Below are positions 1-32,031 of a stretch of DNA of 64,000 bases, piece after piece (the first letter of the stretch is position 1; every line of letters begins with the position of its first letter). Below the pieces are notes generated by a model. That model had not been told where the DNA came from and did not search any database. It was given only the letters and a program-made list of their open reading frames with translations. This stretch comes from Catenuloplanes niger (GTDB lineage Bacteria > Actinomycetota > Actinomycetes > Mycobacteriales > Micromonosporaceae): positions 6,147,001-6,211,000 of the forward strand of contig NZ_JAVDYC010000001.1 of assembly GCF_031458255.1 (NCBI RefSeq), given 5' to 3'. Both the position numbers and the translations under genes were made by a program.

Positions 1-99
1 ACGGCTGCGGTCGACCCGGCCGAGGCCGCGCCCGGTCACCTCCGCGGCGGCGACCTCCTCGAGCCCGCGCAGGGTTCTCGCCAGCAAACGCACCGCCAC
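1..99 (-). CDS. N-terminus of a THUMP/TRM11-type methyltransferase-like protein (cut by window edge)
   Basis: Only the first 33 codons are visible, reading leftward from a GTG at 99 that sits 9 nt after a GGGAGG ribosome binding site. The start reads VAVRLLARTLRGLEEVAAAE, which resembles the opening strand and helix of THUMP-domain RNA methyltransferases. That resemblance is from memory of the family and the catalytic domain lies outside the window. Orthosomycin producers protect their ribosomes by 23S rRNA methylation, so a methyltransferase divergent from the first cluster gene could be a resistance gene. This is inference; any other protein with a similar N-terminus remains possible. Confidence 0.4.
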   Translation of the reverse strand, partial: MAVRLLARTLRGLEEVAAAEVTGRGLGRVDRSR

Positions 100-148
100 C
101 GGCCGTATCCTCCCGTCGGCGGAAATCCATCTGGGGAACCGCGCGATA

Positions 149-164
149 TCTAGGTGAAATGCCA
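149..164 (+). promoter_or_regulatory. Recurrent TCTAG-type 16-bp motif, copy 1
   Basis: TCTAGGTGAAATGCCA lies in the 205-nt gap between two divergent genes, 140 nt before the ketosynthase-like gene. It matches 12 of 16 bases of the copy at 17735. Operator or promoter role is inferred from recurrence in front of several cluster operons. Confidence 0.45.
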
Positions 165-304
165 ATCCTGTCTCGCTCCGACCATCATAGAGTTGCGGTA
201 CGGCGAAATGGATTCCGGGCGGCCGACGGCCGAACTCGGTGGTCGGGTAATGACCGTGCGCCGATCGACGACGGTGATCGTCATGCTATCGAGGAGACGA
301 CTTC

Positions 305-1339
305 GTGCGGACACCGGACATGTTCATCGCCGGCATCGGGACGTTCATTCCACCGCGGGTCAGCGTCGAATGGGCGGTCGCGCGCGGTCTCTATCCGGCC
401 GCGGACGCGGAGACCCACGAGCTCGGCGGCGTCGCCATCGCGGGTGACCTGCCCGCGCCCGAGATGGCGCTGCGGGCGGCCCAGCAGGCGGTGAAGCGGT
501 GGGGCGGCTCCCCGGAGGAGTTCGACCTGTTGCTGTACGCCAGCACCTGGCACCAGGGGCCGGACGGCTGGCCGCCGCAGTCCTACCTGCAACGGCATCT
601 GGTCGGCGGGGACCTGCTCGCGCTGGAGATCCGGCAGGGCTGCAACGGGCTGTTCAGCGGCATGGAGCTCGCCGCCGGCCACCTCGCCGCCGTCCCGGAG
701 CGGACGAGTGCGCTGCTGGTCGCGGCGGACAACTACGGTACGCCGCTGATCGACCGCTGGTCGATGGGACCCGGGTTCATCGGCGGTGACGCAGCGTCCG
801 CGATCGTGCTGACCAAGCAGCCGGGGTTCGCCCGCCTGCGCTCGGTGTGCTCCCGGACGATCACGGCCGCGGAGTCGCTGCACCGCGGCGACGAGCCGCT
901 GTTCCCGCCGAGCATCACGGCCGGCCGGACCACCGACTTCAGCGCCCGGATCGGCCAGCAGTTCGCCACCCGCAGCGCGGCCTCCGTGGCCATGGCGGAC
1001 ATGCCTCAGTGGACGGTGGACCTGGTCGACCGGGCGCTGGCCGAGGCCGGCATCGGCGTCGGCGACATCACCCGGGTGGCTTTCATGAACTACTCCCGCG
1101 AGGTGGTCGAGCAGCGGGTGATGGCCATGTGGGACCTGCCGCTGTCGCGGTCGACCTGGGAGTACGGCCGCGGGATCGGGCACTGCGGCGCCAGCGACCC
1201 CATCCTGTCGTTCGACCACCTGCTCCGGAACGGGGAGCTCGGCCCGGGCGACCACATGCTGATGCTCGGCACCGCACCGGGCGTCGTGCTGTCCTGCGCC
1301 GTCGTCGAGGTCCTCGAGTCGCCGCCCTGGGCGGGCTGA
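305..1339 (+). CDS. KSIII-like acyltransferase (AviN/CerJ/DpsC-like)
   Basis: A 344-residue thiolase-fold protein of the FabH family. GTG start 8 nt after GAGGAG at 291-296. The acyl-accepting cysteine is in RQGCNGLFSG (Cys113). The FabH HQAN histidine is replaced by FMNYS (Asn262), and the usual NTSAAS region reads GIGHCGASDP (His293, Asp298), so the catalytic set is not that of a chain-elongating synthase. Such altered KSIII enzymes (CerJ, and AviN in avilamycin) move acyl groups onto other acceptors. With a halogenase and many glycosyltransferases nearby, the likely job is to load or transfer an orsellinate-type aromatic acid onto a sugar. It is monocistronic, followed by a strong hairpin. 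Confident of family; substrate is inferred. Confidence 0.82.
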   Translation: MRTPDMFIAGIGTFIPPRVSVEWAVARGLYPAADAETHELGGVAIAGDLPAPEMALRAAQQAVKRWGGSPEEFDLLLYASTWHQGPDGWPPQSYLQRHLVGGDLLALEIRQGCNGLFSGMELAAGHLAAVPERTSALLVAADNYGTPLIDRWSMGPGFIGGDAASAIVLTKQPGFARLRSVCSRTITAAESLHRGDEPLFPPSITAGRTTDFSARIGQQFATRSAASVAMADMPQWTVDLVDRALAEAGIGVGDITRVAFMNYSREVVEQRVMAMWDLPLSRSTWEYGRGIGHCGASDPILSFDHLLRNGELGPGDHMLMLGTAPGVVLSCAVVEVLESPPWAG

Positions 1340-1400
1340 CCGGCCCGGGCGGTCCCGCCTCGGGGCCGCGACGTCGAGTTCCAGCCATGACCACGAACGG

Positions 1401-1447
1401 CGGTGCCGCCGGGCGCGGCGTCGACGTGGACGCGCCCGGCGGCACCG
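1401..1447. terminator. Bidirectional hairpin terminator
   Basis: A perfect 17-bp inverted repeat (1401-1417 with 1431-1447, 13-nt loop) between two convergent genes. No T tract, as is common in high-GC actinomycetes. Confidence 0.75.
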
Positions 1448-1450
1448 GAC

Positions 1451-2281
1451 CTAGCGTTCGAGGTTCCGGTACCGCCAGACCGAGAGCGGCACGAAGACCA
1501 GCATGATCACCGCGGGCCAGGCGAACGCCAGCAGCATCGCGTGCCGGGCCGCCCAGGAATCGCCGACCACGCCGGGGTTGCCGAACAGCTCGCGGCAGGC
1601 CGCCACCGTCGCGGAGACCGGGTTCCACTCCGCGATCGCGCCGAGCCACGGTGGCATCTGGGTGGGCGAGACGAACGTGTTGGCCAGCATGGTCAGCGGC
1701 AGCAACGGTACGTAACCGGCGCCGACCGCCTCCACCGGCAGGATCAGCCCGAAGAAGATGCCGGCCCAGACCAGCGCGAACCGGAACAGCAGCAGCAGGC
1801 CGAGCGCGCCGAGCGCGGGCCCGATGCCGTCATGGAAGCGCCAGCCCACCAGCAGCGCGCAGACGACCAGGATGGTCAGCTCGAACACCGAGGTGACCAC
1901 GTCGGCGACGCAGCGGCCGAGCGCCACGCCGGTCTGCGCCATCGGCATCGTCCGGAACCGGTCGGTCATGCCCTTCGCCGTGGCCGAGCTGGTGACCATC
2001 ATCGTGGTGATGATCCCGAACATCATGGTCTGGCCGAACAGGCCCGGCATCAGGAACTCGCGGTACGACCCACCGCCGGCCACCACCATGGCGCTGCCGA
2101 AGACGAAGCCGAAGACCACGGTCATCACGGGGTACATCAGGCACTGGGTGATCAGCCCGGGGTTGCGCCGCCAGTGGTACAGGTTGGTGCGGCCGACCAC
2201 CCAGCCGTCGATCAGCGCCCACCGCAGCCGGTCCAGCGGGTTCGTGGGCCGGGGTGGCACCGTGATCATCGTCGTGGTCAT
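1451..2281 (-). CDS. ABC-2 type exporter permease (DrrB-like)
   Basis: A 276-residue integral membrane protein with about six hydrophobic segments and the ABC-2 pattern (FRTMPMAQTG near the middle, LANTFVSPTQMPPWLGAI before the last segments). It is the membrane half of a daunorubicin-resistance-type exporter whose ATPase gene lies immediately upstream, overlapping by 4 nt (ATGA). It ends the nine-gene minus-strand operon. Orthosomycin clusters carry such a pair (AviABC1/2), so export of, and self-protection against, the finished antibiotic is the likely role. Confidence 0.87.
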   Translation of the reverse strand: MTTTMITVPPRPTNPLDRLRWALIDGWVVGRTNLYHWRRNPGLITQCLMYPVMTVVFGFVFGSAMVVAGGGSYREFLMPGLFGQTMMFGIITTMMVTSSATAKGMTDRFRTMPMAQTGVALGRCVADVVTSVFELTILVVCALLVGWRFHDGIGPALGALGLLLLFRFALVWAGIFFGLILPVEAVGAGYVPLLPLTMLANTFVSPTQMPPWLGAIAEWNPVSATVAACRELFGNPGVVGDSWAARHAMLLAFAWPAVIMLVFVPLSVWRYRNLER

Positions 2282-3312
2282 GCGGCCGCCCGTCCCGCGC
2301 TCGCTCCGTGCCCGGTCACGCTGAGGAAGACGTCGTCCAGCGTCGGCCGGCGGACCGCCACGTCCTCGACCTCGACCTCGTTGTCGTGCAGCCAGCGCAT
2401 GACGTCGTGCAGCGTGGTGACCTGGTCGCGCACCGGCACGCTGATCCGTGACGCCTCCGCGTCGACCTTCGGCTCCGCGCCCACCACGCCGGCCAGGCCG
2501 AGCGCGGTCCGGGCGACCGCGCCGGCGCCGCGCAGCACCACGTCGATCCGGTGGCCGCCGATCCTCGACTTGAGCTGGTCCGGTGTGCCCTCGGCGATCA
2601 CCCGGCCGTGGTCGAGCACGGCGATCTGGCTCGCCAGCCGGTCGGCCTCCTCCAGGTACTGCGTGGTGAGCAGCACGGTGGTGCCCTGCGCGGCCATCGA
2701 CGCGACAACCTGCCAGACCTCGTTGCGGCTGTGCGGGTCCAGCGCGGTGGTCGGCTCGTCCAGGAACAGCACCTGCGGCCGGAGCAGGAAGCCCACCGCG
2801 AGGTCGAGCCGGCGGCGCATCCCGCCGGAGTAGTGCTTGACCATGCGGGTGGCCGCGTCGGTCAGGCCGAACTGCTCCAGCAGCTCGTCGGCCCGGCGCC
2901 GGGCGGTCCGTACCCCGATGTGGTAGAGCCGGCCCCAGGTCTCCAGGTTCTCCCGGCCGGTGAGGATGTCGTCGACCGTGGTCCGCTGGCCGGTGACCCC
3001 GATCCGGCGGCGCACCTCGTCCGGGTTCCGGGTCACGTCGACGCCACCGACGAGCGCGGTGCCCGAGTCCGGGCGGGTCAGCGTGCTCAGGATCCGTACC
3101 GCGGTGGTCTTCCCGGCGCCGTTGGGGCCGAGCAGGCCGCAGACCGCGCCCCGCGGGACGACCAGGTCGACGCCGTCCAGCGCGGCGACGTCGCCGAACC
3201 GCTTGGCCAGCCCGGCCATGACGATCGCCGCACCGGCGTGCGCCGCGGCGGCGGCCTCGCGGGCGGCGGCCTCCGGGCCCGGCGGCCGCCGGTCGATCAC
3301 GTGTTCAGTCAC
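2278..3312 (-). CDS. ABC exporter ATP-binding protein (DrrA-like)
   Basis: A 344-residue ABC ATPase with Walker A GPNGAGKTT (about 62-70), signature SGGMRRRLDL (about 162-171), Walker B VLFLDEP (about 181-187) and a C-terminal extension typical of DrrA proteins. GTG start preceded by GAGGAAG. It overlaps the permease gene downstream by 4 nt and follows the aldo/keto reductase gene by 27 nt. It should energise drug export with the DrrB-like partner. Confidence 0.9.
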   Translation of the reverse strand: MTEHVIDRRPPGPEAAAREAAAAAHAGAAIVMAGLAKRFGDVAALDGVDLVVPRGAVCGLLGPNGAGKTTAVRILSTLTRPDSGTALVGGVDVTRNPDEVRRRIGVTGQRTTVDDILTGRENLETWGRLYHIGVRTARRRADELLEQFGLTDAATRMVKHYSGGMRRRLDLAVGFLLRPQVLFLDEPTTALDPHSRNEVWQVVASMAAQGTTVLLTTQYLEEADRLASQIAVLDHGRVIAEGTPDQLKSRIGGHRIDVVLRGAGAVARTALGLAGVVGAEPKVDAEASRISVPVRDQVTTLHDVMRWLHDNEVEVEDVAVRRPTLDDVFLSVTGHGASAGRAAA

Positions 3313-3339
3313 TGGCTTCCTCTCCTGGAACGGCCCGGT

Positions 3340-4320
3340 TCAGACGCCGGCCGGTGCCCGGTGCGGCGGCTCCGTGTCGGGCAGCACCGGCGGCGCCCCC
3401 TCGACCAGCCGGCCGAGCTCGGCCAGTTCGGCCTCGTCGAGCCGCACCTCGAGCGCCCGCACGCTGTCCTCGACGTGCTCGGGCTCCTGGGCGCCGAAGA
3501 TCGGCACCACGCCGGCCGGCTGGTGCAGCACCCAGGCGAGCGCGAGCTGGGCCACGCTGATGCCCCGGTCCGCGGCGACCGCGGCGAGCCGGTCCACCGC
3601 GGTCGCCACCGCGGCGAGGCGCTCACCTCGGAAGACCGGGGAGTAGGCGCGCCAGTCGTCCGGCGCGAACGTGTGCCCCGGCCGCAGCGCGCCGGTCAGC
3701 AGGCCGTGGGCCAGCGAGGCCCAGCCCATCACCGGGACGCCGGCCGCGCGGCAGTACGGCAGGACGTCCCGCTCGACCCCGCGGGCCAGCAGGCTGTACG
3801 GGACCTGGGCGACCGCCGCCGGCCCGAACTCGGCCATCTGCCCGGCCGTGAAGTTGGAGACGCCGGTCCGGCGGACCAGTCCCTCCTCGACGAACCCGGC
3901 GAGCACGCCCGCGGTCTCGGCCAGCGGGATGGTCGGGTCCGGCCAGTGCACCAGGAACAGGTCCACGTAGTCGGTGCCCAGCGCGCTGAGGCTGGCCACC
4001 AGGCCGGAGCGGAGAACCTCCGGGTCGCAGTCGCGCACCACGGAGTTCCCCTGGATCCGCAGCCCGCCCTTGGTGACGATGACCAACTCCGAGCGGTGGG
4101 TACGGACCAGGTCGCCGAGCCCGCGGGCGAGCGCGGCCTCCGCGGCACCGTCGCCGTAGGCGCGGGCGGTGTCGAAGAAGTTCACCCCGAGGTCGAACGC
4201 GCGGCGCACCGCGTGCACCGCGGGCTCGATCCCACCGCCCCACAGCCCGCTGAGCGGCCAGGTGCCCAGGCAGAGCCGGGACACCCGGGGACCGTCGGCG
4301 CCGAGTGGGAGACGGTTCAC
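3340..4320 (-). CDS. Aldo/keto reductase
   Basis: A 326-residue AKR. The catalytic tetrad is visible: Asp and Tyr in FFDTARAYG, Lys in VIVTKGG, His in LFLVHWPDP, and the cofactor end IFGAQEPEHVEDS. The GTG start at 4320 overlaps the upstream methyltransferase stop (GTGA), which decides the start although an open frame continues further upstream. AKRs in sugar pathways reduce NDP-4-keto-2,3-enol sugars (EryBII/TylCII type) or other sugar ketones. A deoxysugar tailoring step is likely here, but the substrate cannot be read from the sequence. Confidence 0.8.
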   Translation of the reverse strand: MNRLPLGADGPRVSRLCLGTWPLSGLWGGGIEPAVHAVRRAFDLGVNFFDTARAYGDGAAEAALARGLGDLVRTHRSELVIVTKGGLRIQGNSVVRDCDPEVLRSGLVASLSALGTDYVDLFLVHWPDPTIPLAETAGVLAGFVEEGLVRRTGVSNFTAGQMAEFGPAAVAQVPYSLLARGVERDVLPYCRAAGVPVMGWASLAHGLLTGALRPGHTFAPDDWRAYSPVFRGERLAAVATAVDRLAAVAADRGISVAQLALAWVLHQPAGVVPIFGAQEPEHVEDSVRALEVRLDEAELAELGRLVEGAPPVLPDTEPPHRAPAGV

Positions 4321-5048
4321 GCCGCGGGCTTCTCGTCGCGCCGGAGGATCAGGTAGCAGACCCCGTCCTCGTTGACGAACTCGTCGAGCAGCGGTGTCAG
4401 GCCGGCCTCGACCGCTATCGCCGCGATCACGTCCACGCCGTGGAAGGACAGGAAGCCCTTGAACTCGATCGGGTTCGCCCCCAGGTAGCGCTCCGCGTAG
4501 AAGTGGAAGAAGCTGCGGGTCGCGCCGCCGATGTCGAGGAAGTTCACCCCGAAGTGGCCGCCGGGCCGCAGGATCCGGGCGATCTGGCGGAAGTAGTGGA
4601 AGAACTCGAACACGTTCAGGTGGATGAAGACGTTGAGGGAGAACCCGCCGTCGAACGCCGCGGACGGCAGCGCGGCCAGGAAGTCGTTGTCGATGTGGTG
4701 GTAGTCGACGTTGGTGTGCTCCCGGCAGGTGACCCGCGCCTTGTCCAGGAACGAGCGGCTGACGTCCGTGCACAGCAGCCGGCCCACCCGGGGCGCGAGG
4801 ACGTCGGCCATCACCCCCTCGCCGCTGCCGATCTCGAAGACCGACGATTCCGGGGTGAGCCGGAGCCGGTCGGCGATCCAGTTCGCCCGGTCGACGCGGT
4901 CCTGCAGGTACTCGTCCCGCGGCTGGGTGCCGGCGAGCTGGATCTGCATCTCGTCCGGTGTGTTCCACTCCCACACCAGGTTGAGATCGCCCATGCTGCG
5001 CAGCGGCGGCTTGGGCGTGGCGGTCGGCGTTTCCTGTGCGTTGCTCAT
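4317..5048 (-). CDS. SAM-dependent class I methyltransferase
   Basis: A 243-residue methyltransferase. Motif I VFEIGSGEGVMADVL (about 70-84), acidic motif LLCTDVS, and post-motif LRPGGHFGVNFLDIGG. It starts with an ATG overlapping the glycosyltransferase stop (ATGA) and ends overlapping the AKR start, so it is translationally coupled on both sides. Probably one of the several sugar or aryl O-methyltransferases an orthosomycin needs; the acceptor is unknown. Confidence 0.78.
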   Translation of the reverse strand: MSNAQETPTATPKPPLRSMGDLNLVWEWNTPDEMQIQLAGTQPRDEYLQDRVDRANWIADRLRLTPESSVFEIGSGEGVMADVLAPRVGRLLCTDVSRSFLDKARVTCREHTNVDYHHIDNDFLAALPSAAFDGGFSLNVFIHLNVFEFFHYFRQIARILRPGGHFGVNFLDIGGATRSFFHFYAERYLGANPIEFKGFLSFHGVDVIAAIAVEAGLTPLLDEFVNEDGVCYLILRRDEKPAA

Positions 5049-6364
5049 CGAACCTCGCTCACGGTGTCCCGGGTGATTTCCCTGTGGTGCTGGCCCCGGC
5101 CGGCCACCAGACCGGCGACGTCGCCGGCGGTCAGCTCGCCGGTCCTGGCCAGCGTGACGAGCAGGTCGGCGACCTGCACGGCGGTCGGTGCGGCGGCCAC
5201 GGACGCGCTCAGCTCGGCCGCGCGGCGCTTGTACCGGTGGTCGAACAGCACCTCGGCGATCGCCTTGTCGATCTCCTCGGCGCCGATCATCAGTGCGGGC
5301 AGCGTCTTGGTCGCGCCCTGCGGGTCGAGCCGCCTGCCGTAGATCTGGCCGTCGAAGTTCAGGGCCAGGGACAGCTGCGGTATGCCCGTCACGATGCCGT
5401 TCATCAGGCAGTTCGCGCTGCCGTGGTGGATGAGGAGATCGCAGCCGGGCAGGATCAGCTCGAGCGGGCAGTTGCGCAGCACCCGGACGTTCGGCGGCAG
5501 CGAGCCCATCGCCTCCACCTCGGAGAGCGCGGCGGTCAGCACCACCTCCGCGGCCAGCTGGGCCGCGGTCTCCACCGCCCGGCGCAACGCCGGCAGCCGC
5601 TCGCCGAAGACGCCGGTGGCCGAGTTGCCCCACACCACGCAGACGCGCTTGCCGCGGACCGGGCCGAGCAGCCACGGGTCGACGTCCTGGTTGCCGTTGT
5701 ACGGGTGGTACCGGATGGGTATCCGCAGCGCGTCGCCCATCGGTGGCACGGCCGCGTCCGGTGACGGGTCGACCGCGTACCTGATGTCGCGCCGGGTCCA
5801 GTCCACGCCGTACTTCTCGAAGCAGGACAGCGGGTCCCCGGCCATCAGGTTGAGCCCCGGCTCCGTCTCCACGGTGCCGATGAACCCGGGGCCGTAGTAG
5901 ACGCTCGGCACGTTGTTCAGCACCCCGACCAGCGCGCCCTCGATCGCCATGATGTCGTGCACGACGAGGTCCGGCCGCCACGAGGCGGCGAAGTCGACGG
6001 CGTTGTCGAAGCTGCGCTGCACCGCGGTGATGGTCTTCTTCCAGAAGTCGCTGAGCATGCCGGTGTCGAAGTCGCGCACCGAGTCGAGCGCCTCGCCGGT
6101 GAACGGGTGCAGCGGCAGCGGCATCTCACCGCTCTGCGGCGGCGTGTTGATCGCCAGCGACCAGTAGGCCAGGCGCGCGCTCTCCATCATGTCGGCCGCG
6201 TCGAGGACCGAGACCGGCATCAGCCCGGTCGAGATGACGCCCTGCACCTGCTGCGACGGGCAGGCCACCCGGACTTCGTGACCCGCCGCCCGGAACGCCC
6301 AGGCCAGCGGCACCATGCACATGTAGTGTCCGGCCCAGTTGGACACGGTGAACAGAATTCGCAA
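5045..6364 (-). CDS. GT1-family glycosyltransferase (EryCIII-like)
   Basis: A 439-residue GT-B glycosyltransferase. The N-terminal acceptor domain begins RILFTVSNWAGHYMCMVPLA, and the C-terminal donor domain carries VVWGNSATG and the LLIHHGSANCLMNG nucleotide-sugar signature. I chose a TTG start at 6364 because GGGGAG lies 6 nt upstream and the homologous N-terminus begins there. Relatives use NDP-deoxysugars on polyketide or oligosaccharide acceptors. In orthosomycins a GT1 enzyme starts the chain on the aromatic acid or adds a deoxysugar; which one applies here is inferred. Confidence 0.83.
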   Translation of the reverse strand: MRILFTVSNWAGHYMCMVPLAWAFRAAGHEVRVACPSQQVQGVISTGLMPVSVLDAADMMESARLAYWSLAINTPPQSGEMPLPLHPFTGEALDSVRDFDTGMLSDFWKKTITAVQRSFDNAVDFAASWRPDLVVHDIMAIEGALVGVLNNVPSVYYGPGFIGTVETEPGLNLMAGDPLSCFEKYGVDWTRRDIRYAVDPSPDAAVPPMGDALRIPIRYHPYNGNQDVDPWLLGPVRGKRVCVVWGNSATGVFGERLPALRRAVETAAQLAAEVVLTAALSEVEAMGSLPPNVRVLRNCPLELILPGCDLLIHHGSANCLMNGIVTGIPQLSLALNFDGQIYGRRLDPQGATKTLPALMIGAEEIDKAIAEVLFDHRYKRRAAELSASVAAAPTAVQVADLLVTLARTGELTAGDVAGLVAGRGQHHREITRDTVSEVR

Positions 6365-6409: not shown

Positions 6410-7627
6410 TCAGGACGCCCCTTCGTCAACGAGGCTGATCGGGTCGAGCGAGTTCATGAACGAGCGCAGGGCGCCGAGGTGCACCGCGGGCTTGTCCCAG
6501 CCCAGCTCGGTGCACCAGGCGATCAGGTCGGTCAGCTCCTCGGTCGCGCGCGCCTTCTCGTCGGCCGGCAGGCTGGTCACGGAGAAGTCGGCCGGCCACT
6601 GCACGACGTTGGCCAGATCCACCTCCAGGCCCTCGGCGCGCGCGAACTCGAGCACGTTGCGCAGGTCCCACAGGTTGTGCCGCTGCGGCGACACCTGGAG
6701 CCAGACGTCCACCTCGGACCGGAGCAGCCGCAGGTTGGCCACGAAGTCGGCCCACTTGCCGCCGGCCCGGATGAACTCGAAGACCTCGCCGACGCCGTCG
6801 CAGGACGCCCCGATCCCCACGCTTTTGAAGTGCGGGAAGAGCTTCATCGCCCGTTCCGGGGAGACGGTCAGGTTGGAGTTGTACGCGATGTCGACGTTGC
6901 CCGCGTTACCGGTCTCCACCAGCAGCTCCAGCATGGCGAAGTGACCGGGCTGCAGGAACGGTTCGCCGCCGGCGAAGTACAGCCGGCGGATCAGGTGCGC
7001 GTTCTCCCGGAGCGTGGTCCACAGCTCCTCGTCCGCGCGGTAGGGGTCGATGACCGCGGACGACCACTTCGGGCGCTGCTTGGCCCCCCAGGAGGAGCTC
7101 ACCGGGTACGTACACATGACGCACCGCAGGTTGCAGGTGTTGCCGAATCGGATGTCGAGGAAGAAAGGGAACTCCTCGACGGTGCCGTCCGCGGCGGTGC
7201 GGGCGGCCAGCGCCTCCAGGTCGAACTCCTGCGCGAACCGGCGGTTGACGTTCTGCCGGTAGGACTGGGCGGCGTGGTCCTCGCGGAAGTAGCAGTACTG
7301 GCAGGCCGCCACGCGCTCACCGTTCAGCATGGCGAGCCTGGTGCGCTTCATGTTCGGGCTGTTGAACGCCTCCTCGAGGCCCATCACCCGGTCCGGGTTG
7401 TCCTTGGCGTACCGCGAGCCGGGCGAGCAGCCGATCGCGTCGTCGTTCAGCGCGAACACCGGCTCCTCGCTCTCGTCGTAGAGCGCGTTGTGGTACATGG
7501 AGTCGTCGACGCAGCAGCGGCCGTAGACGCCGTCGATGGAGGCGCAGAGGTGGATCCACGGCAGCACGCACGCGGTCTCCGCGGCCGCCCTGTGCGGAGG
7601 GCCGTGCCGGCCGGCCGATTCGCTCAT
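6410..7627 (-). CDS. Twitch-type radical SAM enzyme (AviX12-like)
   Basis: A 405-residue radical SAM protein. The [4Fe-4S] motif CX3CX2C is in NTCNLRCVMCTYP (about residues 160-170), followed by FAGGEPFLQPG. Extra cysteines lie N-terminal (CVLPWIHLC, RCC, CQYCYF), suggesting an auxiliary cluster of the twitch/SPASM type. It sits between the oxygenase (16 nt) and a glycosyltransferase. AviX12 of avilamycin is a radical SAM epimerase that converts a glucose residue to mannose late in the pathway; by context this is the probable counterpart. Confidence 0.82.
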   Translation of the reverse strand: MSESAGRHGPPHRAAAETACVLPWIHLCASIDGVYGRCCVDDSMYHNALYDESEEPVFALNDDAIGCSPGSRYAKDNPDRVMGLEEAFNSPNMKRTRLAMLNGERVAACQYCYFREDHAAQSYRQNVNRRFAQEFDLEALAARTAADGTVEEFPFFLDIRFGNTCNLRCVMCTYPVSSSWGAKQRPKWSSAVIDPYRADEELWTTLRENAHLIRRLYFAGGEPFLQPGHFAMLELLVETGNAGNVDIAYNSNLTVSPERAMKLFPHFKSVGIGASCDGVGEVFEFIRAGGKWADFVANLRLLRSEVDVWLQVSPQRHNLWDLRNVLEFARAEGLEVDLANVVQWPADFSVTSLPADEKARATEELTDLIAWCTELGWDKPAVHLGALRSFMNSLDPISLVDEGAS

Positions 7628-25372: not shown

Positions 25373-26542
25373 GTGAAGATTCTGTTTATCGCAGGGCCGA
25401 CGAAGTCCAGCCTATTCGGGCTGGCACCACTCGCGATCGCCGCCCGCACCGGTGGCCATCGCGTCGTCATGGCCTCCACCGCGGAGGTCGTGCCGACCGC
25501 GCTCGGCATCGGCCTGCCGGCCTTCCCGATGACACCGTTGTCGTTCACCCACCTGATGACGGTGGGCCGGGACGGCGAGTCCCTGCGGATCCCGGCGGAC
25601 GAGGCGGAACTGAGCACGTTCGTCGGCCACATGTTCGGGCGGCTCACCGCCGCCGGGCTGCCCGCGCTGCGGGACCTGGCGACGGGCTGGCGCCCGGATC
25701 TGATCGTCGGCGGCCCGCATGCCTACGCCGCACCGCTGCTCGCCGCGGAGTTCGGCGTGCCCAGCGTGCGTCACCTGCTCACCGGCAACACCATCGACCG
25801 CGAGGGTACGCATCCGGGCGTGGACGATGAGCTGCGGCCCGAACTGGCCGGCCTCGGCCTCGACCGGGTCCCCGGCTTCGACCTGGCGATCGACATCTTC
25901 CCGGCGAGCACCCGGATCGACGCGGTGACACCCGGCCAGCCGGTGTGCCCGATGCAGTGGATCCCGACGAACCAGCAGGGCCCGGCGGAACCGTGGATGC
26001 TGACCCGCGGCGCGCGCCGTCGCGTCCTCGTCACGGCCGGCAGCCTGGTGACCCGGACGCACAACTTCGCGTTCCTGAGCGGTCTGGCCCGCACGTTCGC
26101 CGCGCTCGACGTCGACCTGGTCATCGCCGCCCCGGAGGACGTCGGCGCCGCGCTGCGCGACGAGCCCGGCGTGCTGCACGCCGGCTGGGTCCCGCTGGAC
26201 CTGATCATGCCCACCTGTGACCTGATCGTGCACCACTCCGGCACGATGACGGCGCTGACCGCGCTGCACGCCGGTGTGCCGCAGCTCATCGTGCCGCAGG
26301 AGAGCCGGTTCATCGGCTGGGCGCAGAACCTCGCCGTCCTGGGGACCGCGATCACGCTGCGGCCCGGTGAGGCCGACCCGGAGCTGCTGGCCGGCGCCGG
26401 CAAGTCGCTGCTCACCGAGGCGTCGTACGCCGACGCGGCCGCCGCGCTCGCGGCGGAGATCGCCGGCATGCCGCTGCCCGGCGCGGTCGTCGGCGTGCTC
26501 GAGGACCTGGTGGCGAAGGGGTCGGCATGCGGGTCCTCGTGA
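25373..26542 (+). CDS. GT1-family glycosyltransferase (deoxysugar type)
   Basis: A 389-residue GT-B enzyme beginning VKILFIAGPTKSSLFGLAPL, with a donor domain containing LVTAGSLVTRTHN, HAGWVPLDLIMPTCDLIVHH and SGTMTALTALHAGVPQL. GTG 25373 follows GGAGG by 5 nt. Its 3' end overlaps the epimerase gene by 16 nt. The family transfers TDP-deoxysugars; it is a candidate for attaching the nitrosugar. The IS-like element ends only 64 nt upstream, so its native promoter may have been displaced. Confidence 0.83.
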   Translation: MKILFIAGPTKSSLFGLAPLAIAARTGGHRVVMASTAEVVPTALGIGLPAFPMTPLSFTHLMTVGRDGESLRIPADEAELSTFVGHMFGRLTAAGLPALRDLATGWRPDLIVGGPHAYAAPLLAAEFGVPSVRHLLTGNTIDREGTHPGVDDELRPELAGLGLDRVPGFDLAIDIFPASTRIDAVTPGQPVCPMQWIPTNQQGPAEPWMLTRGARRRVLVTAGSLVTRTHNFAFLSGLARTFAALDVDLVIAAPEDVGAALRDEPGVLHAGWVPLDLIMPTCDLIVHHSGTMTALTALHAGVPQLIVPQESRFIGWAQNLAVLGTAITLRPGEADPELLAGAGKSLLTEASYADAAAALAAEIAGMPLPGAVVGVLEDLVAKGSACGSS

Positions 26543-27465
26543 CGGGCGGTGCCGGTTTCATCGGCTCGCACCTGGTCGACGCGCTGCTGGCCCGCGGCGA
26601 CACCGTGACGGTGGTGGACGACCTCTCCACCGGGCGGGACGGCCGGCTGGCCGCCGGCGCCGGCCTGTGCCGAGAGTCGATCATGGAGGCGGCCGCGCTG
26701 ACCGCGCTGGCCCGCCGGGTCCGCCCGGACCTGATCTGTCACCTCGCCGCACAGGCCGACGTCCGGATCTCGGTCGCGGACGTCGCGGGGGACACCGGGG
26801 TGAACATCCTCGGCACGGTCAGCGTGCTGGAGGCGGCGCGCGCCGTCGGCGCCCGGGTGGTCTTCGCCTCCACCGGCGGAGCGCTGTACGGCGCGATCGA
26901 CGCGGTGCCGTCCCCGGAGAACGCCCGGCCCGAGCCGGCGGCGCCGTACGGTGCCGCCAAGTACTGCGCGGAGCAGTACCTCGGCCTCTACAACCGGCTG
27001 TACGGCACGGCGCACGCGGTCCTGCGGCTGGGCAACGTCTACGGGCCCCGTCAGGATCCGGCCGGCGAGGCCGGGGTGGTCTCGATCTTCTGCGGTGCCG
27101 TGCTGGCGGGGCGGCGGCCCACCGTGTTCGGCGACGGCAAGCAGACCCGCGACTACGTCTACGTCGGCGACGTCGTGGACGCGTTCCTGCGCGCGGCCGA
27201 CCACGGCGGCGCGGGCGTCTGGAACATCGGCACCGGCGTCTCCACCACGATCTTGGAGCTGCTGGAGGCCATCGGGCGGACCGCGGACCAGACCGTCCAG
27301 CCGGTGTTCGCGGCCGCCCGCCTCGGCGAGCTCCAGCACTCCGCGCTCGACGTGACCCGGGCCGGCCGGGAACTGGGCTGGACCGCCCGGACCGCACTGG
27401 CCGAGGGGATCACCAAGGTCTACAGGTGGATCGAGGCCCGGGAGCCGGTGCGCGGCGAGCCGTGA
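26527..27465 (+). CDS. NDP-sugar epimerase/dehydratase (extended SDR)
   Basis: A 312-residue SDR with VTGGAGFIGSHLVDALLARG, VVDDLSTGR, catalytic PYGAAKYCAEQYLG (YxxxK) and LRLGNVYGPRQDP. This is the UDP-glucose 4-epimerase/UDP-glucuronate decarboxylase type, and the sequence does not decide between C4 epimerisation, decarboxylation to UDP-xylose or another reaction. Overlap with the preceding glycosyltransferase suggests it makes that enzyme's donor or modifies its product. Confidence 0.8.
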   Translation: MRVLVTGGAGFIGSHLVDALLARGDTVTVVDDLSTGRDGRLAAGAGLCRESIMEAAALTALARRVRPDLICHLAAQADVRISVADVAGDTGVNILGTVSVLEAARAVGARVVFASTGGALYGAIDAVPSPENARPEPAAPYGAAKYCAEQYLGLYNRLYGTAHAVLRLGNVYGPRQDPAGEAGVVSIFCGAVLAGRRPTVFGDGKQTRDYVYVGDVVDAFLRAADHGGAGVWNIGTGVSTTILELLEAIGRTADQTVQPVFAAARLGELQHSALDVTRAGRELGWTARTALAEGITKVYRWIEAREPVRGEP

Positions 27466-27513: not shown

Positions 27514-28272
27514 TCAGGCCGTCTTCAGCCAGGGGCGCGGCTCCGGATCGGCGACCTCGGCCGGCCGACCCATGAAGACCAGCACGTACGCCCGGCGCGG
27601 TTGATCGGTCTGGTTCGGGCCGGCGTAGTGCGGCGCCCGGAAGTCGTGGATGACCGCCTCGCCGGCCGCCAGCGGGCAGGCGACCGCGGCCGAGTCGTCG
27701 ACCTCGTCCGTCATCAGCCCTTCGATCCGGTCGTCGTGGTCGATGTGGTGGTGCGGCAGCACCGGGTTCAGGTGGCCGCCCGGGATGTACTGCAGGCACC
27801 CGCTCTCCACGGTGGCGCCGTCCAGCGGCGTCCAGATGCTCAGCCCCCGCCACTTCCACTTCGGGTCCATGTACGCCTCGTCCTGGTGCCACGGCGTCGG
27901 TGCGCCGTACCGCGGCGGCTTGAGGATCGCGTGCCCGTAGAAGTCGAGCTCGTCCGCGGGAATGTCCAGGAACGTGGAGGCGATCGCACGGCATCGCGCG
28001 AAGTGCGCACTGTCGAGCAATTCAGGAGCGTATTTCTCCGGCTTGATGATCTGGGGGAGCTTGGCCGGTTCACCGGCGTCGTCGCGGCCCGCGATGTCCC
28101 GGTAGTCGCCGGTCTCGGGAACCGCGTAATCCGCGAACAACTTGTCGTAGACGCTACGCAGCCAGGCGACTTCCGGGTCGTCGGCGAGCCGCGGAAGAGT
28201 GAGGAAGCCATCCCTCCGATAGGCCTCGATCTGGTGTTCGTCGATCTCGAAGTCCAGGGTTTCACTGCGCAT
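27514..28272 (-). CDS. Phytanoyl-CoA dioxygenase-family Fe(II)/2OG oxygenase (2)
   Basis: A 252-residue oxygenase. Facial triad HQD in PWHQDEAYMDP with distal His in VIHDFRAPHYAGPNQ, and the 2OG Arg in QPRRAYVLVFM. ATG 28272 has GGGAGG 7 nt upstream. It is alone on its transcript, with a cluster promoter motif 83 nt before it. A second enzyme of this family in the same cluster fits the separate oxidative ring closures (two orthoesters and a methylenedioxy bridge) of orthosomycins; its exact position of action is unknown. Confidence 0.85.
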   Translation of the reverse strand: MRSETLDFEIDEHQIEAYRRDGFLTLPRLADDPEVAWLRSVYDKLFADYAVPETGDYRDIAGRDDAGEPAKLPQIIKPEKYAPELLDSAHFARCRAIASTFLDIPADELDFYGHAILKPPRYGAPTPWHQDEAYMDPKWKWRGLSIWTPLDGATVESGCLQYIPGGHLNPVLPHHHIDHDDRIEGLMTDEVDDSAAVACPLAAGEAVIHDFRAPHYAGPNQTDQPRRAYVLVFMGRPAEVADPEPRPWLKTA

Positions 28273-28355: not shown

Positions 28356-28375
28356 GGGAAAAACCTAGTGATGAC
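28356..28375 (-). promoter_or_regulatory. Shared TTTTCCC promoter motif, copy 3
   Basis: On the minus strand this reads GTCATCACTAGGTTTTTCCC, 17 of 20 identical to 10892-10911, and lies 83 nt before the oxygenase start. The gap also serves the divergent HAD gene. Confidence 0.5.
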
Positions 28376-28472
28376 TGGTGAGATGCCGGATGCTCGTTGA
28401 AAGGCTCGATCGCCCATCACTCACCGTGCGAGGATCGCCCGGATATCGCCGACGACACGGGAGTGATTGGCC

Positions 28473-29222
28473 ATGACCGAATACGGCGCCGTGGCGCTGG
28501 ATGTCGGCGGGGTGATCTACTACGACGAGCCATTCGAGCTGGCCTGGCTGCAGGCGACGTACGACCTGCTCCACGCCGCCGATCGGGCGATCACCCGGTC
28601 CGTCTTCATCGAGCAGGTGGAGCGCTTCTACCGCGACCCGGCGGGCGATCCCGCCGGCCGGCCGCTGCTGCACTCGCCGGCCGGCGCGGACGCCTGGGCA
28701 CGGGTCCGGCTGGCCTGGACCGAGCTCGCCCAACAGATGCCGGGCGCGGTCCGGGCCGCGACCGAGCTGGCCCGGGCGGTGCCGGTGGTGATCGTGGCCA
28801 ACCAGCCGCCGGAGTGCATGCGGGTGCTGGACGCCTGGGGACTGACCGAGGCCTGTGCCGCGGTCTTCCTGGACTCGCTGACCGGCGTCGCCAAACCCGA
28901 CCCGGCGCTGTTGCGCCTGGCCCTGGACCACCTCGGCGTCCACCCGGCCGATCTGCTGGTCGTCGGCAACCGGGTGGACCACGACGTGGTGCCGGCACGC
29001 GCGCTCGGCTGCCCGGTCGCGTTCGTCCTCGCCGACCCCGGTTACCGGACGCCGCCCGGGGTGCACCCCGACCTGGAGCGGGCGTACACGTCCCTCCGGG
29101 CCGTCCGGACCGCGCCACCGGCCGACGGCGACGCGTGGCTGCGCACGGTCCCGGCGCTGGCCGCCCTGAGCCGTCGGCCGGTGGCCGGCCCGCTCCCGAT
29201 CACCCGTGCCGAGGCGTCGTGA
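28473..29222 (+). CDS. HAD-superfamily hydrolase
   Basis: A 249-residue HAD protein. Motif I ALDVGGVIYYDE, motif II VVIVANQPPE (the Asn in place of Thr/Ser is unusual), motif III Lys in GVAKPDPALLRLAL, motif IV LLVVGNRVDHDVVPARALG. ATG 28473 has GGGAG 9 nt upstream; a TTG 6 nt earlier is too close to that site. It may remove a phosphate from a sugar phosphate in eurekanate or other sugar assembly, but no substrate can be named. GTGA overlap with the next gene. Confidence 0.75.
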   Translation: MTEYGAVALDVGGVIYYDEPFELAWLQATYDLLHAADRAITRSVFIEQVERFYRDPAGDPAGRPLLHSPAGADAWARVRLAWTELAQQMPGAVRAATELARAVPVVIVANQPPECMRVLDAWGLTEACAAVFLDSLTGVAKPDPALLRLALDHLGVHPADLLVVGNRVDHDVVPARALGCPVAFVLADPGYRTPPGVHPDLERAYTSLRAVRTAPPADGDAWLRTVPALAALSRRPVAGPLPITRAEAS

Positions 29223-30136
29223 CCACGGTGCGGGTGCGGCAGTGCGCGGCGGCGGTGATCGGCGCCACCGGGTTCATCGGTTCCCGGCTCGTCGCCGAGC
29301 TGACCAGCTCCGGGCATCCGGTCGCCCGGTTCAACCAGGCGCATCCACCGGTGGTCGGCGGGCGGGCGGCTCCCGGCCTCTGCGACGCCGAGATAGTCCT
29401 GTTCCTCGCGGCGCGGCTGAGCCCGGCACTCGCGGAGCGGCACCCGGAGCAGATCGCCGCCGAGCGGAAGCTGCTCATCGACGTGCTGGAGGTTCTCCGG
29501 CGGTCCGGCAGGTCCCCGGTGTTCGTGCTGGCCAGCTCGGGCGGCACGGTCTACTCACCGGACGTGTGGCCGCCGTACGCGGAGTCGGCGCTGACCCGGC
29601 CCACGTCGGCGTACGGCCGGGCCAAACTCCGGTTGGAACGGGAGCTGCTGGACCACGCCGCGCACGTCCGCCCGGTGATCCTGCGGCTCAGCAACGTCTA
29701 CGGTCCGGGCCAGCGGCCCGCCCACGGGTACGGCGTGCTGTCGCACTGGCTGGACGCCGCGGCCAGGCGGCAGCCGATCAGGGTCTTCGGCGATCCGGAC
29801 GTGGTGCGCGACTACGTGCACGTGGACGACGTCGCCGGCATCCTCACCACGCTGCACCGCCGCACCGCCGACACCGGCCTGGACGGCATCCCGGCCGTGC
29901 TCAACGTGGGCTCCGGCGCACCGACCTCGCTCAACGACCTGCTCGGCATCGTGTCCACGGTGGTCGACCGGCGGATCGAGGTGGTGCGCGAGGGCGGCCG
30001 CCAGTTCGACCGGCGCGGGAACTGGCTGGACTCCTCGCTGGCCCACGCCACGCTGGGCTGGAAGGCGCAGATCGGGCTGACCGACGGCGTGCGCGAGTGC
30101 TGGCGGCACCTGCTCGACGAGCGGGCCGGCCGGTGA
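29219..30136 (+). CDS. NAD-dependent sugar epimerase/reductase (extended SDR)
   Basis: A 305-residue SDR with AAVIGATGFIGSRLVAEL, SSGGTVYSP, catalytic TSAYGRAKLRLERE (YxxxK) and LRLSNVYGPGQ. GTG 29219 overlaps the HAD stop. Related to UDP-glucose 4-epimerase/dTDP-sugar reductases; it probably edits one of the oligosaccharide sugars. The exact reaction is not decided by sequence. Confidence 0.78.
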   Translation: MTTVRVRQCAAAVIGATGFIGSRLVAELTSSGHPVARFNQAHPPVVGGRAAPGLCDAEIVLFLAARLSPALAERHPEQIAAERKLLIDVLEVLRRSGRSPVFVLASSGGTVYSPDVWPPYAESALTRPTSAYGRAKLRLERELLDHAAHVRPVILRLSNVYGPGQRPAHGYGVLSHWLDAAARRQPIRVFGDPDVVRDYVHVDDVAGILTTLHRRTADTGLDGIPAVLNVGSGAPTSLNDLLGIVSTVVDRRIEVVREGGRQFDRRGNWLDSSLAHATLGWKAQIGLTDGVRECWRHLLDERAGR

Positions 30137-30138
30137 CG

Positions 30139-30168
30139 GCGGTGCCGGCCTCAGCCGGCCGGCACCGC
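30139..30168. terminator. Bidirectional hairpin terminator
   Basis: Perfect 12-bp stem (30139-30150 with 30157-30168), 6-nt loop that includes the stop codon region of the convergent glycosyltransferase gene. Confidence 0.75.
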
Positions 30169-31044
30169 TGAGCGGCGGTACCGCGCCCAGCCCCGCAGCA
30201 GCAGGCCGTGCAGCACGCCCCAGCCGGTCACCGCGCCGTAGAGGCAGGCGAGCGGCAGGCGCAGGCGGGACTCCGGCGCGCTCCGGTGGCGGTCCCACTC
30301 CTTGCGCAGACCGGCCCGCGCCTGGTCCCGCCCGGCCTCGCACCGGCCCTGCCAGTACGCCCGCCGCAGCAGGTAACGCAGGGTCAGCCGGGCGGGGTCG
30401 ACGTCATGCGTCACGGAGTAGTCCGGCAACAGCTGCTCCCGGGCTCCCGCGTCCTTCATCATCTTGATGAAGGTGGTGTCCTCGCCGGACTGGAGGTTGC
30501 CGCCGGTGCGGCTCAGCGCCATGTCGAACGAGAGGCCGTTGGCGTGCGCGAACGCGGTGTCCACGGCCATGCAGGCGCCCCAGATCTTGATGTCGCGGTC
30601 GTCCCGGTGCCAGCCGAGCAGATGGAACTGGCCGGACGTCACGTACCACGGCAGCGGGAGCGGTGGGCGGGCGAGGCGGGCGCCGACGACGTGCGCCCCC
30701 GCGCGCAGGCTCTCCCGGACCGCGGTGACGGCCTTGGCGTCGAGCCGCACGTCGTCGTCGACGAACATCACGTGGTGATGCGGCCAGCGGGCCAGCATGA
30801 GATTGCGCGACGCGGACAGGCCGCCGGTGGCGCCGAGCACGTGCATCGTCCCACCGGCCGCGCCGACCTCGGCCGCGACCTCCTCCGCCGCCGGGGTGAC
30901 CGGCCGGTCCAGCTGGACGAAGTACTCGTCGCCGGACAACTGAGCCAGGTTGTGGTGCAGGTGCTTGCGTACGTTCTCGACGTGGAAGGCGCAGATCGCC
31001 ACCACCATCGGGAGGTCGGCCGGCTCTGATTTCCTCTGTTCCAT
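30151..31044 (-). CDS. GT2-like glycosyltransferase
   Basis: A 297-residue GT-A-type enzyme: VVAICAFHVENVRKHL at the start, LSASRNLMLARWPHHHVMFV then DDDV (a DxD-type metal site), and GGNLQSGEDTTFIKMMKDAG as acceptor motif. A hydrophobic C-terminal stretch (LPLACLYGAVTGWGVLHGLL) may touch the membrane. ATG 31044 has GAGG 5 nt upstream. It lies 79 nt after the LuxR-type gene on the same strand and may share its transcript. Confidence 0.75.
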   Translation of the reverse strand: MEQRKSEPADLPMVVAICAFHVENVRKHLHHNLAQLSGDEYFVQLDRPVTPAAEEVAAEVGAAGGTMHVLGATGGLSASRNLMLARWPHHHVMFVDDDVRLDAKAVTAVRESLRAGAHVVGARLARPPLPLPWYVTSGQFHLLGWHRDDRDIKIWGACMAVDTAFAHANGLSFDMALSRTGGNLQSGEDTTFIKMMKDAGAREQLLPDYSVTHDVDPARLTLRYLLRRAYWQGRCEAGRDQARAGLRKEWDRHRSAPESRLRLPLACLYGAVTGWGVLHGLLLRGWARYRRSAVPAG

Positions 31045-31123
31045 GTGGCCTCGAATCGTCCCTTGCCCATGAATGTAGGTACTCAGGTGATACGAACAGC
31101 TGGACGGACGGCCGCGGTGCGGC

Positions 31124-31372
31124 TCATTCGAGCGTTTCGCGGCGGACCTCCGGCGGCCAGGTGCCGACGGTGAGGATGCCAAGAGAATAGACCTTGGCGA
31201 TGAGGGCGGGCCGATTGGGGACGCGCAGGTTCTGCAGCAGTTTACTGACGTGGTATTCGACGCCCTGGCGACTCAGATACACCTTGTTCGCGATGTGCAC
31301 GGTCCGTTCGCCGGCGGCGATGCTCTCGATGATGCGAGCATCCAGTTCGGATAGCGACAGTTTAAAGCTCAC
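31124..31372 (-). CDS. Stand-alone LuxR-type HTH regulator
   Basis: An 82-residue protein made almost only of a LuxR C-terminal HTH: LSLSELDARIIESIAAGE, VHIANKVYLSRQGVEYHVSK (recognition helix region) and LLQNLRVPNRPALIAKVYSLG. I chose GTG 31372, with GGAG 8 nt upstream; a TTG at 31402 would add 10 residues. There is no receiver or ligand-binding domain. At the cluster edge it is the only regulator in the cluster part of the window and the best candidate to read the recurrent intergenic motifs, which is inference. Confidence 0.78.
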   Translation of the reverse strand: MSFKLSLSELDARIIESIAAGERTVHIANKVYLSRQGVEYHVSKLLQNLRVPNRPALIAKVYSLGILTVGTWPPEVRRETLE

Positions 31373-32031
31373 AGCCTGGTCTCCATCCCTCGTGACGATC
31401 AATGTCGCAATATGTCAACCCATGGCGCACTTATTCATGGTGGTTCCACCTCACCTTTCAAATGTCGCCGGCATGGCGGGACCGGGCACGGCGCACCGTT
31501 GCCCGAGAAGATATTCTTGTGAAGCATTCCCGCCAGTCGGACCGTCATGGGCCGAGGCGTACGGAACGAGCTCGGTGGCTCCCGTACGATGGGAAGCTCT
31601 ACACGTGATCACCGCACGTGGGGCGCATGCAAGCGCTATTCATATTGGTCAGCAAGCATGTCGCACGTGTTTCATGAGAAAGTACACCCCGTGTCACCTG
31701 AAACACCCCAGATTGCCAGTGGTGAATGCACCGCTGACCTGTCCGATCGTGGTGGCACGGTGACCGGACGTGCCATCAGACTAACCGATCGTCCCCTCCG
31801 GTGTCTTCCTTGGACAGACGTCGACCTATGATCGCCTCGGCCATTGAAGATCGCATAACGCTCGTCCGGCGATCACGGTGCGTCCGGAAGATGCCGATTT
31901 GCCCGTGACGCTCCCCCGCCCGGTGCGGTGCTCGTTCCGCCTGCTCGGAGTCGGCTTTCCGGCAGGCTCCACCGCCTCGCGGGCTGAGCTCCGCTCCCGG
32001 CCGGGCGCGGAGCGCGATTTCCCCATGAGTC

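What the first reader, a model, noticed from the sequence alone, without database searches (positions are those of the whole stretch)
1..31402. Orthosomycin (everninomicin-type) gene cluster, missing its PKS and early sugar genes in this window
Seen: KSIII-like acyltransferase, WxWxIP halogenase, two PhyH-type oxygenases, twitch radical SAM, orphan E1 alpha/beta, six glycosyltransferases, several methyltransferases, DrrAB exporter and a nitrososynthase block. Known: avilamycin and everninomicin clusters have this unusual set (AviN, AviH, AviO, AviX12, AviB1/B2, EvdC). Inferred: the product is an orthosomycin with a nitrosugar. No orsellinate synthase, NDP-glucose synthase, 4,6-dehydratase or 2,3-dehydratase lies in the window, so the cluster probably continues leftward.
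Basis: partly seen in the sequence, partly recalled or inferred. Interest (0 to 1): 0.85.

Follow-up and report, generated by a model that had tools for sequence, protein, structure and literature searches.

The report
Complete everninomicin-type gene cluster, Catenuloplanes
An actinomycete of the genus Catenuloplanes carries what looks like a full gene set for an everninomicin-type antibiotic; it is a new member of a known family, with an extra RNA-methylating gene that is a distant relative of a resistance gene seen on enterococcal plasmids.

Summary
Window 1-31402 is the right half of an everninomicin-type orthosomycin cluster. The genes missing from the window (orsellinate-type PKS, NDP-glucose synthase, 4,6- and 2,3-dehydratases) lie directly to the left. 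The cluster spans about 58 kb (window -26645 to 31402) in a genome of the genus of Catenuloplanes japonicus. Of 50 called genes, 45 have reciprocal best hits (median identity 84%) in a Micromonospora cluster whose EvdMO1 aligns identically with PDB 6EC3. EvdO1, EvdO2, nitrososynthase, AviRa and AviRb match solved structures. The cluster is absent at this locus in a genus-mate and lies elsewhere in C. japonicus. Predicted product: a dichlorinated everninomicin with evernitrose and eurekanate; no chemistry was available. Least ordinary is a third RNA methyltransferase-like gene with a TrmN fold and a distant full-length match to EmtA (27%). In Catenuloplanes and Micromonospora it was found only with the cluster. 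Its self-protection role is inferred, and it was probably already reported in ATCC 39149. New member of a known kind.

The parts
1..87 (-). 5' end of the third RNA methyltransferase-like gene (full gene window -962..87, genome 6146038-6147087): UPF0020 / TrmN fold, distant EmtA relative; candidate self-protection gene
   Evidence: Pfam PF01170; NCBIfam NF033398 97.5 bits, below its 625 cut-off; fold TrmN 3tma TM 0.79/0.83; distribution
320..1339 (+). AviN-type KSIII-like acyltransferase
   Evidence: Pfam ACP_syn_III_C; 74-88% in three Micromonospora clusters, 76-80% in Spongiactinospora and two Streptomyces clusters
1451..2281 (-). ABC exporter membrane protein (DrrB / AviABC-like)
   Evidence: Pfam ABC2_membrane; 70% in S. 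curacoi, no hit in G154 or M. rubida
2278..3300 (-). ABC exporter ATPase (DrrA / AviABC-like)
   Evidence: Pfam ABC_tran, DrrA1-3_C; 65% in S. curacoi
3340..4284 (-). aldo/keto reductase
   Evidence: Pfam Aldo_ket_red
4317..5048 (-). methyltransferase
   Evidence: Pfam Methyltransf_25
5045..6346 (-). EryCIII-type glycosyltransferase
   Evidence: Pfam
6410..7567 (-). AviX12-type twitch radical SAM enzyme
   Evidence: NF033640 above cut-off; relatives in 8 of 354 family genomes
7644..8585 (-). EvdO1 orthologue, PhyH-type (Fe/2OG) oxygenase
   Evidence: 4XBZ E 6.9e-191
8582..9301 (-). FkbM-type methyltransferase
   Evidence: Pfam Methyltransf_21
9313..10758 (-). AviH-type flavin halogenase
   Evidence: Pfam Trp_halogenase; WYWVIP
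11032..11967 (+). AviB1/B2-type E1 alpha subunit (two-carbon branch of eurekanate)
   Evidence: Pfam E1_dh; role from PMC8234114
11972..12937 (+). E1 beta subunit
   Evidence: Pfam Transket_pyr and Transketolase_C; 72-99% in 8 of 9 compared clusters, none in the ATCC 39149 region
12979..13971 (+). family-2 glycosyltransferase
   Evidence: Pfam
13968..15020 (+). glycosyltransferase
   Evidence: Pfam Glyco_trans_1_2
15063..16082 (-). glycosyltransferase family 1
   Evidence: Pfam
16090..17286 (-). MycE-like methyltransferase
   Evidence: Pfam MycE_N
17805..18725 (+). putative sugar O-methyltransferase
   Evidence: NCBIfam TIGR04371, 134 bits, above cut-off 44
18722..19732 (+). NAD-dependent epimerase/ketoreductase, reciprocal hits only in the nitrosugar clusters
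   Evidence: Pfam Epimerase
20293..21534 (-). sugar C-methyltransferase (evernitrose block)
   Evidence: Pfam Methyltransf_14
21561..22682 (-). sugar aminotransferase (evernitrose block)
   Evidence: Pfam DegT_DnrJ_EryC1
22694..23932 (-). nitrososynthase
   Evidence: 3MXL E 6.3e-206
24181..25269 (-). IS4-family transposase-like ORF, present at this place in three Catenuloplanes genomes
   Evidence: PF13006; NF033592 103 bits, below its 115 cut-off; 91% and 79%
25373..26542 (+). EryCIII-type glycosyltransferase of the nitrosugar clusters; full length with this start
   Evidence: Pfam on the longer frame; homologues of 379-389 aa align from here
26527..27465 (+). NAD-dependent sugar epimerase
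   Evidence: Pfam; UDP-glucose 4-epimerase 4ZRM E 7e-77
27514..28272 (-). EvdO2 orthologue, PhyH-type (Fe/2OG) oxygenase
   Evidence: 4XAB E 6.8e-121
28473..29222 (+). HAD-type phosphatase
   Evidence: Pfam Hydrolase
29219..30136 (+). sugar epimerase/reductase
   Evidence: Pfam Epimerase
30151..31008 (-). probable glycosyltransferase, reciprocal hits in all nine compared clusters
   Evidence: weak NCBIfam only; 63-99%
31124..31402 (-). small HTH-type regulator; start GTG 31372 or TTG 31402
   Evidence: translation and homologues; the LuxR-type HTH label is recalled from the sequence pattern, no family scan was run on it

Best explanation
The region is the right half of an about 58-kb everninomicin-type orthosomycin cluster in a Catenuloplanes genome. 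Working model: the AviM-type PKS (window -21607..-17855) makes orsellinate, which is O-methylated, dichlorinated by the AviH-type halogenase and moved onto the sugar chain by the AviN-type acyltransferase. NDP-glucose synthase, 4,6- and 2,3-dehydratases, reductases, C-methyltransferases, the aminotransferase and the nitrososynthase make the deoxysugars and evernitrose. The E1 pair adds the two-carbon branch of eurekanate. The glycosyltransferases assemble the oligosaccharide, the radical SAM enzyme epimerises one residue, and EvdO1, EvdO2 and EvdMO1 close the orthoester and methylenedioxy rings. AviRa- and AviRb-type methyltransferases, and probably a third, EmtA/TrmN-like one, protect the producer's 23S rRNA; a DrrAB-type pump exports the product. 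Shown here: gene content, orthology to the published evd type, and the island-like position. Inferred: product structure, expression, and each enzyme activity in this strain.
For: EvdO1, EvdO2, nitrososynthase, AviRa and AviRb matches to solved structures. A protein of Micromonospora genome G154 aligns with 6EC3 over 450 of 450 residues with an identical residue in every column shown, and matches 5T38, deposited as EvdMO1; 45 of 50 cluster genes here have reciprocal best hits in that cluster, median identity 84.1%. The PKS has KS, AT, a dehydratase-type region and ACP with no ketoreductase hit. Gene roles from a review of avilamycin (PMC8234114, passages). Nine further genomes carry clusters of this kind, that of D. 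roseum only in part.
Against: No chemistry or expression data. Gene starts come from my own codon-usage caller. A TylF-like O-methyltransferase beside the G154, M. rubida and Spongiactinospora clusters is absent here, and DrrAB, the aldo/keto reductase and a second Gfo/Idh reductase have no counterpart in G154, so the product may not be identical to everninomicin D. An IS4-like ORF lies inside the nitrosugar block, although neighbouring frames are open. I did not identify the UDP-glucuronate decarboxylase EvdS6.
Confidence: 0.94

Rival explanations
1. Avilamycin/curamycin-type cluster: a heptasaccharide without the nitrosugar.
For: 38 of 50 genes have reciprocal best hits in the S. curacoi cluster, median 68%, and DrrAB is shared with the two Streptomyces clusters but not with G154 or M. 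rubida.
Against: Nitrososynthase, aminotransferase, C-methyltransferase 20293-21534, sugar O-methyltransferase 17805-18725, epimerase 18722-19732 and glycosyltransferase 25373-26542 have no reciprocal best hit in the S. curacoi or Streptomyces MAG clusters, but do in the two other Catenuloplanes, three Micromonospora and Spongiactinospora clusters.
Confidence: 0.03
2. Ziracin-like (ATCC 39149 type) cluster: everninomicin with a second orsellinate and without eurekanate (this structural difference is recalled).
For: 41 of 50 genes have reciprocal best hits in ATCC 39149 (a few of them weak, down to 27%); the EmtA-like gene is shared.
Against: The E1 pair is present here and absent from the ATCC 39149 region; EvdMO1 is fused here as in G154 and split in ATCC 39149; median identity to G154 is higher, 84% against 72%.
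Confidence: 0.05
3. Inactive cluster: complete in outline but damaged by the IS4-like element, or silent.
For: An IS4-like transposase ORF lies between the nitrososynthase and a glycosyltransferase gene.
Against: The same ORF is kept in three Catenuloplanes genomes (91%, 79%), while the two genes beside it are full length and 94-98% conserved there, so the insertion looks old and outside the genes.
Confidence: 0.1

Closest known systems
   Same: 45 of 50 genes, median 84% identity: EvdO1, EvdO2, the EvdMO1 fusion, nitrososynthase, E1 pair, PKS, halogenase, AviRa, AviRb and the EmtA-like methyltransferase
   Different: Gene blocks are rearranged; Catenuloplanes has a DrrAB exporter, an aldo/keto reductase, a second Gfo/Idh reductase and an IS4-like ORF, and lacks the TylF-like O-methyltransferase
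evernimicin (ziracin) cluster, Micromonospora sp. ATCC 39149
   Same: 41 of 50 genes including the nitrosugar block and the EmtA-like gene
   Different: No E1 pair in the region, EvdMO1 split in two genes, no AviRb in the region; in the whole genome the best near-full-length AviRb match is 39% and there is a short 50% fragment
Streptomyces curacoi cluster, avilamycin (avi) type
   Same: 38 of 50 genes, DrrAB exporter, AviRa and AviRb
   Different: No nitrosugar block and no EmtA-like gene in the 100-kb region

Membership tests
everninomicin-type orthosomycin cluster | Ring-closing PhyH-type oxygenases EvdO1, EvdO2 and EvdMO1 | tested here: met
   4XBZ and 4XAB; EvdMO1 orthologue 84% to a G154 protein that aligns identically with 6EC3
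everninomicin-type orthosomycin cluster | Orsellinate-type iterative PKS, AviN-type acyltransferase and halogenase | tested here: met
   the PKS product itself was not tested
everninomicin-type orthosomycin cluster | Nitrososynthase and evernitrose genes | tested here: met
   3MXL E 6e-206; block conserved in six other clusters
everninomicin-type orthosomycin cluster | AviX12-type radical SAM and AviB1/B2-type E1 pair | tested here: met
everninomicin-type orthosomycin cluster | EvdS6-type UDP-glucuronate decarboxylase | tested here: inconclusive
   two of the sugar SDR genes were searched against the PDB, neither matched EvdS6
everninomicin-type orthosomycin cluster | Product with two orthoesters and a nitrosugar | not testable with these tools
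   needs LC-MS/NMR of the strain
avilamycin type | No nitrosugar genes | tested here: not met
   nitrosugar block present
EmtA (23S rRNA G2470 methyltransferase), for the gene at window -962..87 | Score above the curated NCBIfam cut-off | tested here: not met
   97.5 bits against 625; 27% identity over 99% of the query to annotated EmtA
EmtA (23S rRNA G2470 methyltransferase), for the gene at window -962..87 | Methylates G2470 and protects against orthosomycins | not testable with these tools
   needs rRNA mapping and a gene removal
TrmN/Trm14/RlmL fold group, for the same gene | Overall fold and NPPW motif | tested here: met
   NPPWDRQV; top fold match TrmN 3tma

The most novel reading that the evidence does not exclude
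Evernitrose-type producers protect their ribosomes with three methyltransferases aimed at three places of one drug site: AviRa, AviRb and a cluster-borne TrmN-fold enzyme of the same broad family as EmtA, which would methylate G2470 or a neighbour. If so, the plasmid-borne evernimicin-resistance gene of enterococci belongs to a family from which producers also recruited a self-protection gene.
Probability: 0.4. Interest if true: 0.55.

Novelty: new member of a known kind. Interest (0 to 1): 0.34.

Why it matters
It adds Catenuloplanes to the genera that carry an everninomicin-type cluster. In the held library no paper holds both Catenuloplanes and everninomicin or Catenuloplanes and avilamycin; of 59 papers with at least two of Catenuloplanes, everninomicin, avilamycin and orthosomycin, the 30 listed do not mention Catenuloplanes; the one paper found with Catenuloplanes, gene cluster and oligosaccharide concerns siderophores by its title (listing only). 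Most subscription papers are not held, so this is not proof of novelty. The comparison of ten clusters separates the shared core from variable parts (nitrosugar block, E1 pair, exporter, O-methyltransferase, third RNA methyltransferase), which helps to assign genes to rings of a drug class with its own ribosome site.

Tried and rejected
Truncated glycosyltransferase: my caller started the gene at 25469, which made it look shortened; homologues of 379-389 aa align from 25373, so it is intact. EvdS6: two candidates did not identify it. Window -12801 gave no PDB hit at E 1e-60, and 26527 is nearest to UDP-glucose 4-epimerases; I do not name the decarboxylase. EmtA membership: the EmtA model matches chromosomal relatives outside the cluster as well as cluster copies (77-100 bits for four cluster copies, 78-111 bits for five chromosomal ones), so that match alone does not show a resistance role. 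Att repeats: the island begins just after a tRNA-Gly/Cys/Val group, but no stretch of 14 bases or more of the tRNA-Val gene recurs on either strand between there and window 36000. A first alignment used the wrong strand for two loci and was redone. The small ORF 19881-20093 was dropped from the gene count before as a low-score call. In one search the small HTH gene was entered with approximate ends and its blanks partly reflect my gene caller; weak reciprocal hits (27-35%) are included in the counts for distant clusters. The search scored at most five first-look candidates in each listed genome, so absence of the EmtA-like gene in a genome is only as good as that filter.
Full report
WHAT IS THERE. 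The window is bases 6147001-6211000 of a single-contig 9.74-Mb genome. Genes were called by codon usage in the window and the 80 kb to its left. Pfam was run on 47 of the 50 cluster genes; the two AviR-type genes were compared with the PDB instead and the small HTH gene was only translated.

THE MISSING HALF. In window coordinates: iterative type I PKS of 1250 aa at -21607..-17855, with KS, AT, dehydratase-type and ACP regions and no ketoreductase hit; nucleotidyl transferase -10707..-9679 and 4,6-dehydratase-type protein -11696..-10722 (Pfam GDP_Man_Dehyd); NDP-hexose 2,3-dehydratase -5457..-4072 (PF03559, E 2e-155); a methyltransferase-PhyH fusion -14168..-12861; AviRa-like -24278..-23517 (1O9G, E 2e-76); AviRb-like -1874..-1041 (1X7O, E 2e-89). 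The protein at -2801..-1974 has no PDB or Pfam hit at E 0.001 but has reciprocal hits in all nine compared clusters.

ORTHOLOGY. Left and right parts together give 50 genes (one low-score ORF dropped, one small gene added by hand). Reciprocal best hits: 49 of 50 in genus-mate G098 (median 98%), 49 in C. japonicus (93%), 45 in Micromonospora G154 (84.1%), 44 in M. rubida (84.7%), 41 in Micromonospora sp. ATCC 39149 (72%), 45 in Spongiactinospora sp. (72%), 38 in S. curacoi (68%), 37 in a Streptomyces MAG (68%), 28 in Dactylosporangium roseum (66%). G154 is unnamed, but one of its proteins aligns with PDB 6EC3 over its whole length with an identical residue in every column shown, and matches 5T38, deposited as EvdMO1, so its cluster is taken as the published evd type. 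The evd cluster is described as 50 genes in M. carbonacea var. aurantiaca (PMC10338323, passages). The window proteins match EvdO1 and EvdO2 and the nitrososynthase 3MXL.

HOW IT PROBABLY WORKS. Roles of the avi genes are taken from PMC8234114 (passages): AviM makes orsellinate, AviG4 and AviH finish dichloroisoeverninic acid, AviB1/B2 with AviO2 supply the two-carbon branch of eurekanate, AviX12 performs an epimerisation, AviO proteins may take part in orthoester and glycosidic bonds, AviRa/AviRb are tied to resistance. The review states that avilamycin and everninomicin share the seven-sugar core and differ mainly in the nitrosugar and an orsellinic acid. The Catenuloplanes cluster has these genes and the nitrosugar block, so the predicted product is an everninomicin with evernitrose and eurekanate. 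Against G154 it has an extra DrrAB exporter, aldo/keto reductase, second Gfo/Idh reductase and IS4-like ORF. A TylF-like O-methyltransferase (family name recalled) is found in the G154, M. rubida and Spongiactinospora regions and in none of the other eight regions compared, own and Virgisporangium included. One O-methyl group could therefore differ.

AN ISLAND. Between the window genome and C. japonicus, blastn pieces over 400 bases cover window -26537 to 32075 and none lies outside (100 kb of C. japonicus held); a left-flank gene of the window lies on another contig there. Genus-mate G096 has no AviX12 match; its DNA matches the window up to -26984 and again from 33976, with a neighbouring 12-kb block inverted (pieces over 250 bases). 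A tRNA-Gly/Cys/Val group ends at -27028. No att repeat was found, so the mechanism of gain or loss is open. AviX12 relatives occur in 8 of 354 family genomes at E 1e-40 or better, seven at 75% identity or more (own included) and one, Virgisporangium, at 45%.

A THIRD RNA METHYLTRANSFERASE. The gene at -962..87 encodes a 349-aa protein with the NPPW motif. The nearest solved sequence is 3TMA, and the AlphaFold model (mean pLDDT 89.8) is closest to that same TrmN structure, TM 0.79/0.83. It matches the EmtA model over its length, far below the cut-off; in the plasmid collection 4 records match, three of them Enterococcus faecium emtA at 27% identity over 99% of the query and one a Nonomuraea at 48%. 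In the family, relatives at E 1e-15 or better are found in 41 of 354 genomes; the six best matches, 66% identity or more, are the six Catenuloplanes and Micromonospora genomes with the cluster, no other genome of those two genera matches, and the next genome is at 53%. I fetched 14 regions around other relatives. Of 50 cluster proteins searched against them, 14 of 14 regions hold the methyltransferase relative; the only other hits are ABC transporter proteins in four regions and an aldo/keto reductase in one. In one of these, L093, the relative lies next to a DrrA-like ATPase at 50% identity, which could hint at drug efflux there. Within two genera the relatives keep their own neighbourhood. 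In a FastTree of 19 sequences the six cluster copies form one clade, support 0.997. The gene is absent from the Spongiactinospora, S. curacoi, Streptomyces MAG and D. roseum regions, which have AviRa and AviRb; ATCC 39149 has it and AviRa but no AviRb in the region, and genome-wide only a 39% near-full-length match and a short 50% fragment. This pattern fits a self-protection gene. Against it: relatives outside clusters score as well against EmtA, the match is distant, and four of the ten clusters compared do without it. [quoted passage not shown] these are probably the AviRa-like gene and this one, so the gene as such is probably not new. The EmtA name and its G2470 target come from model and record titles; PMC9749270 (passages) says that emtA was found in avilamycin-resistant E. 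faecium.

VERDICT. A correct reading of a real, apparently complete cluster: a member of a known class in a genus for which I found no report in the held library, with one gene worth a direct test. PMC12387530 (abstract and results section) reports everninomicin analogues from a Micromonospora whose genome showed everninomicin features. No chemistry was available for this strain.

Noticed in passing
L041-L045 (Dactylosporangium roseum NRRL B-16295, joined region about 23.4-71 kb): An orthosomycin-like cluster with AviX12, EvdO1, EvdO2, EvdMO1 parts and E1 pair but no match to AviN, halogenase or nitrososynthase and only a 28% partial match to the PKS; instead two ketosynthase-type proteins, an AMP-ligase and a KSIII lie among the genes. 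It may carry a different acyl group.
   Followed up: partly
L053:935-4403 (Virgisporangium aliadipatigenens): A 44-45% AviX12 relative sits next to a 47% relative of the -2801 oxygenase and a polysaccharide-deacetylase-domain protein; in the 100 kb held, the only other cluster-gene match is a 33% ABC ATPase.
   Followed up: partly
window -27299 to -27028: tRNA-Gly, tRNA-Cys and tRNA-Val genes directly left of the island boundary; the same group is seen in the G098 and G096 regions.
   Followed up: partly
window 24181-25269: IS4-family transposase-like ORF kept at the same place in three Catenuloplanes genomes, without a reciprocal hit in the other seven clusters.
   Followed up: partly
window -23216 to -21723 and -17706 to -16363: A multicopper oxidase and a Na+/H+ exchanger-type protein are kept in the Catenuloplanes and Micromonospora clusters (66-98%; the oxidase also at 62% in Spongiactinospora) without a role that I could assign.
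   Followed up: no
L093:9480-12300: Outside any orthosomycin cluster, a 44% relative of the EmtA-like methyltransferase lies beside DrrB-like (28%) and DrrA-like (50%) transporter genes.
   Followed up: no
window 47802-55424: A 2540-aa ORF right of the cluster, not examined.
   Followed up: no
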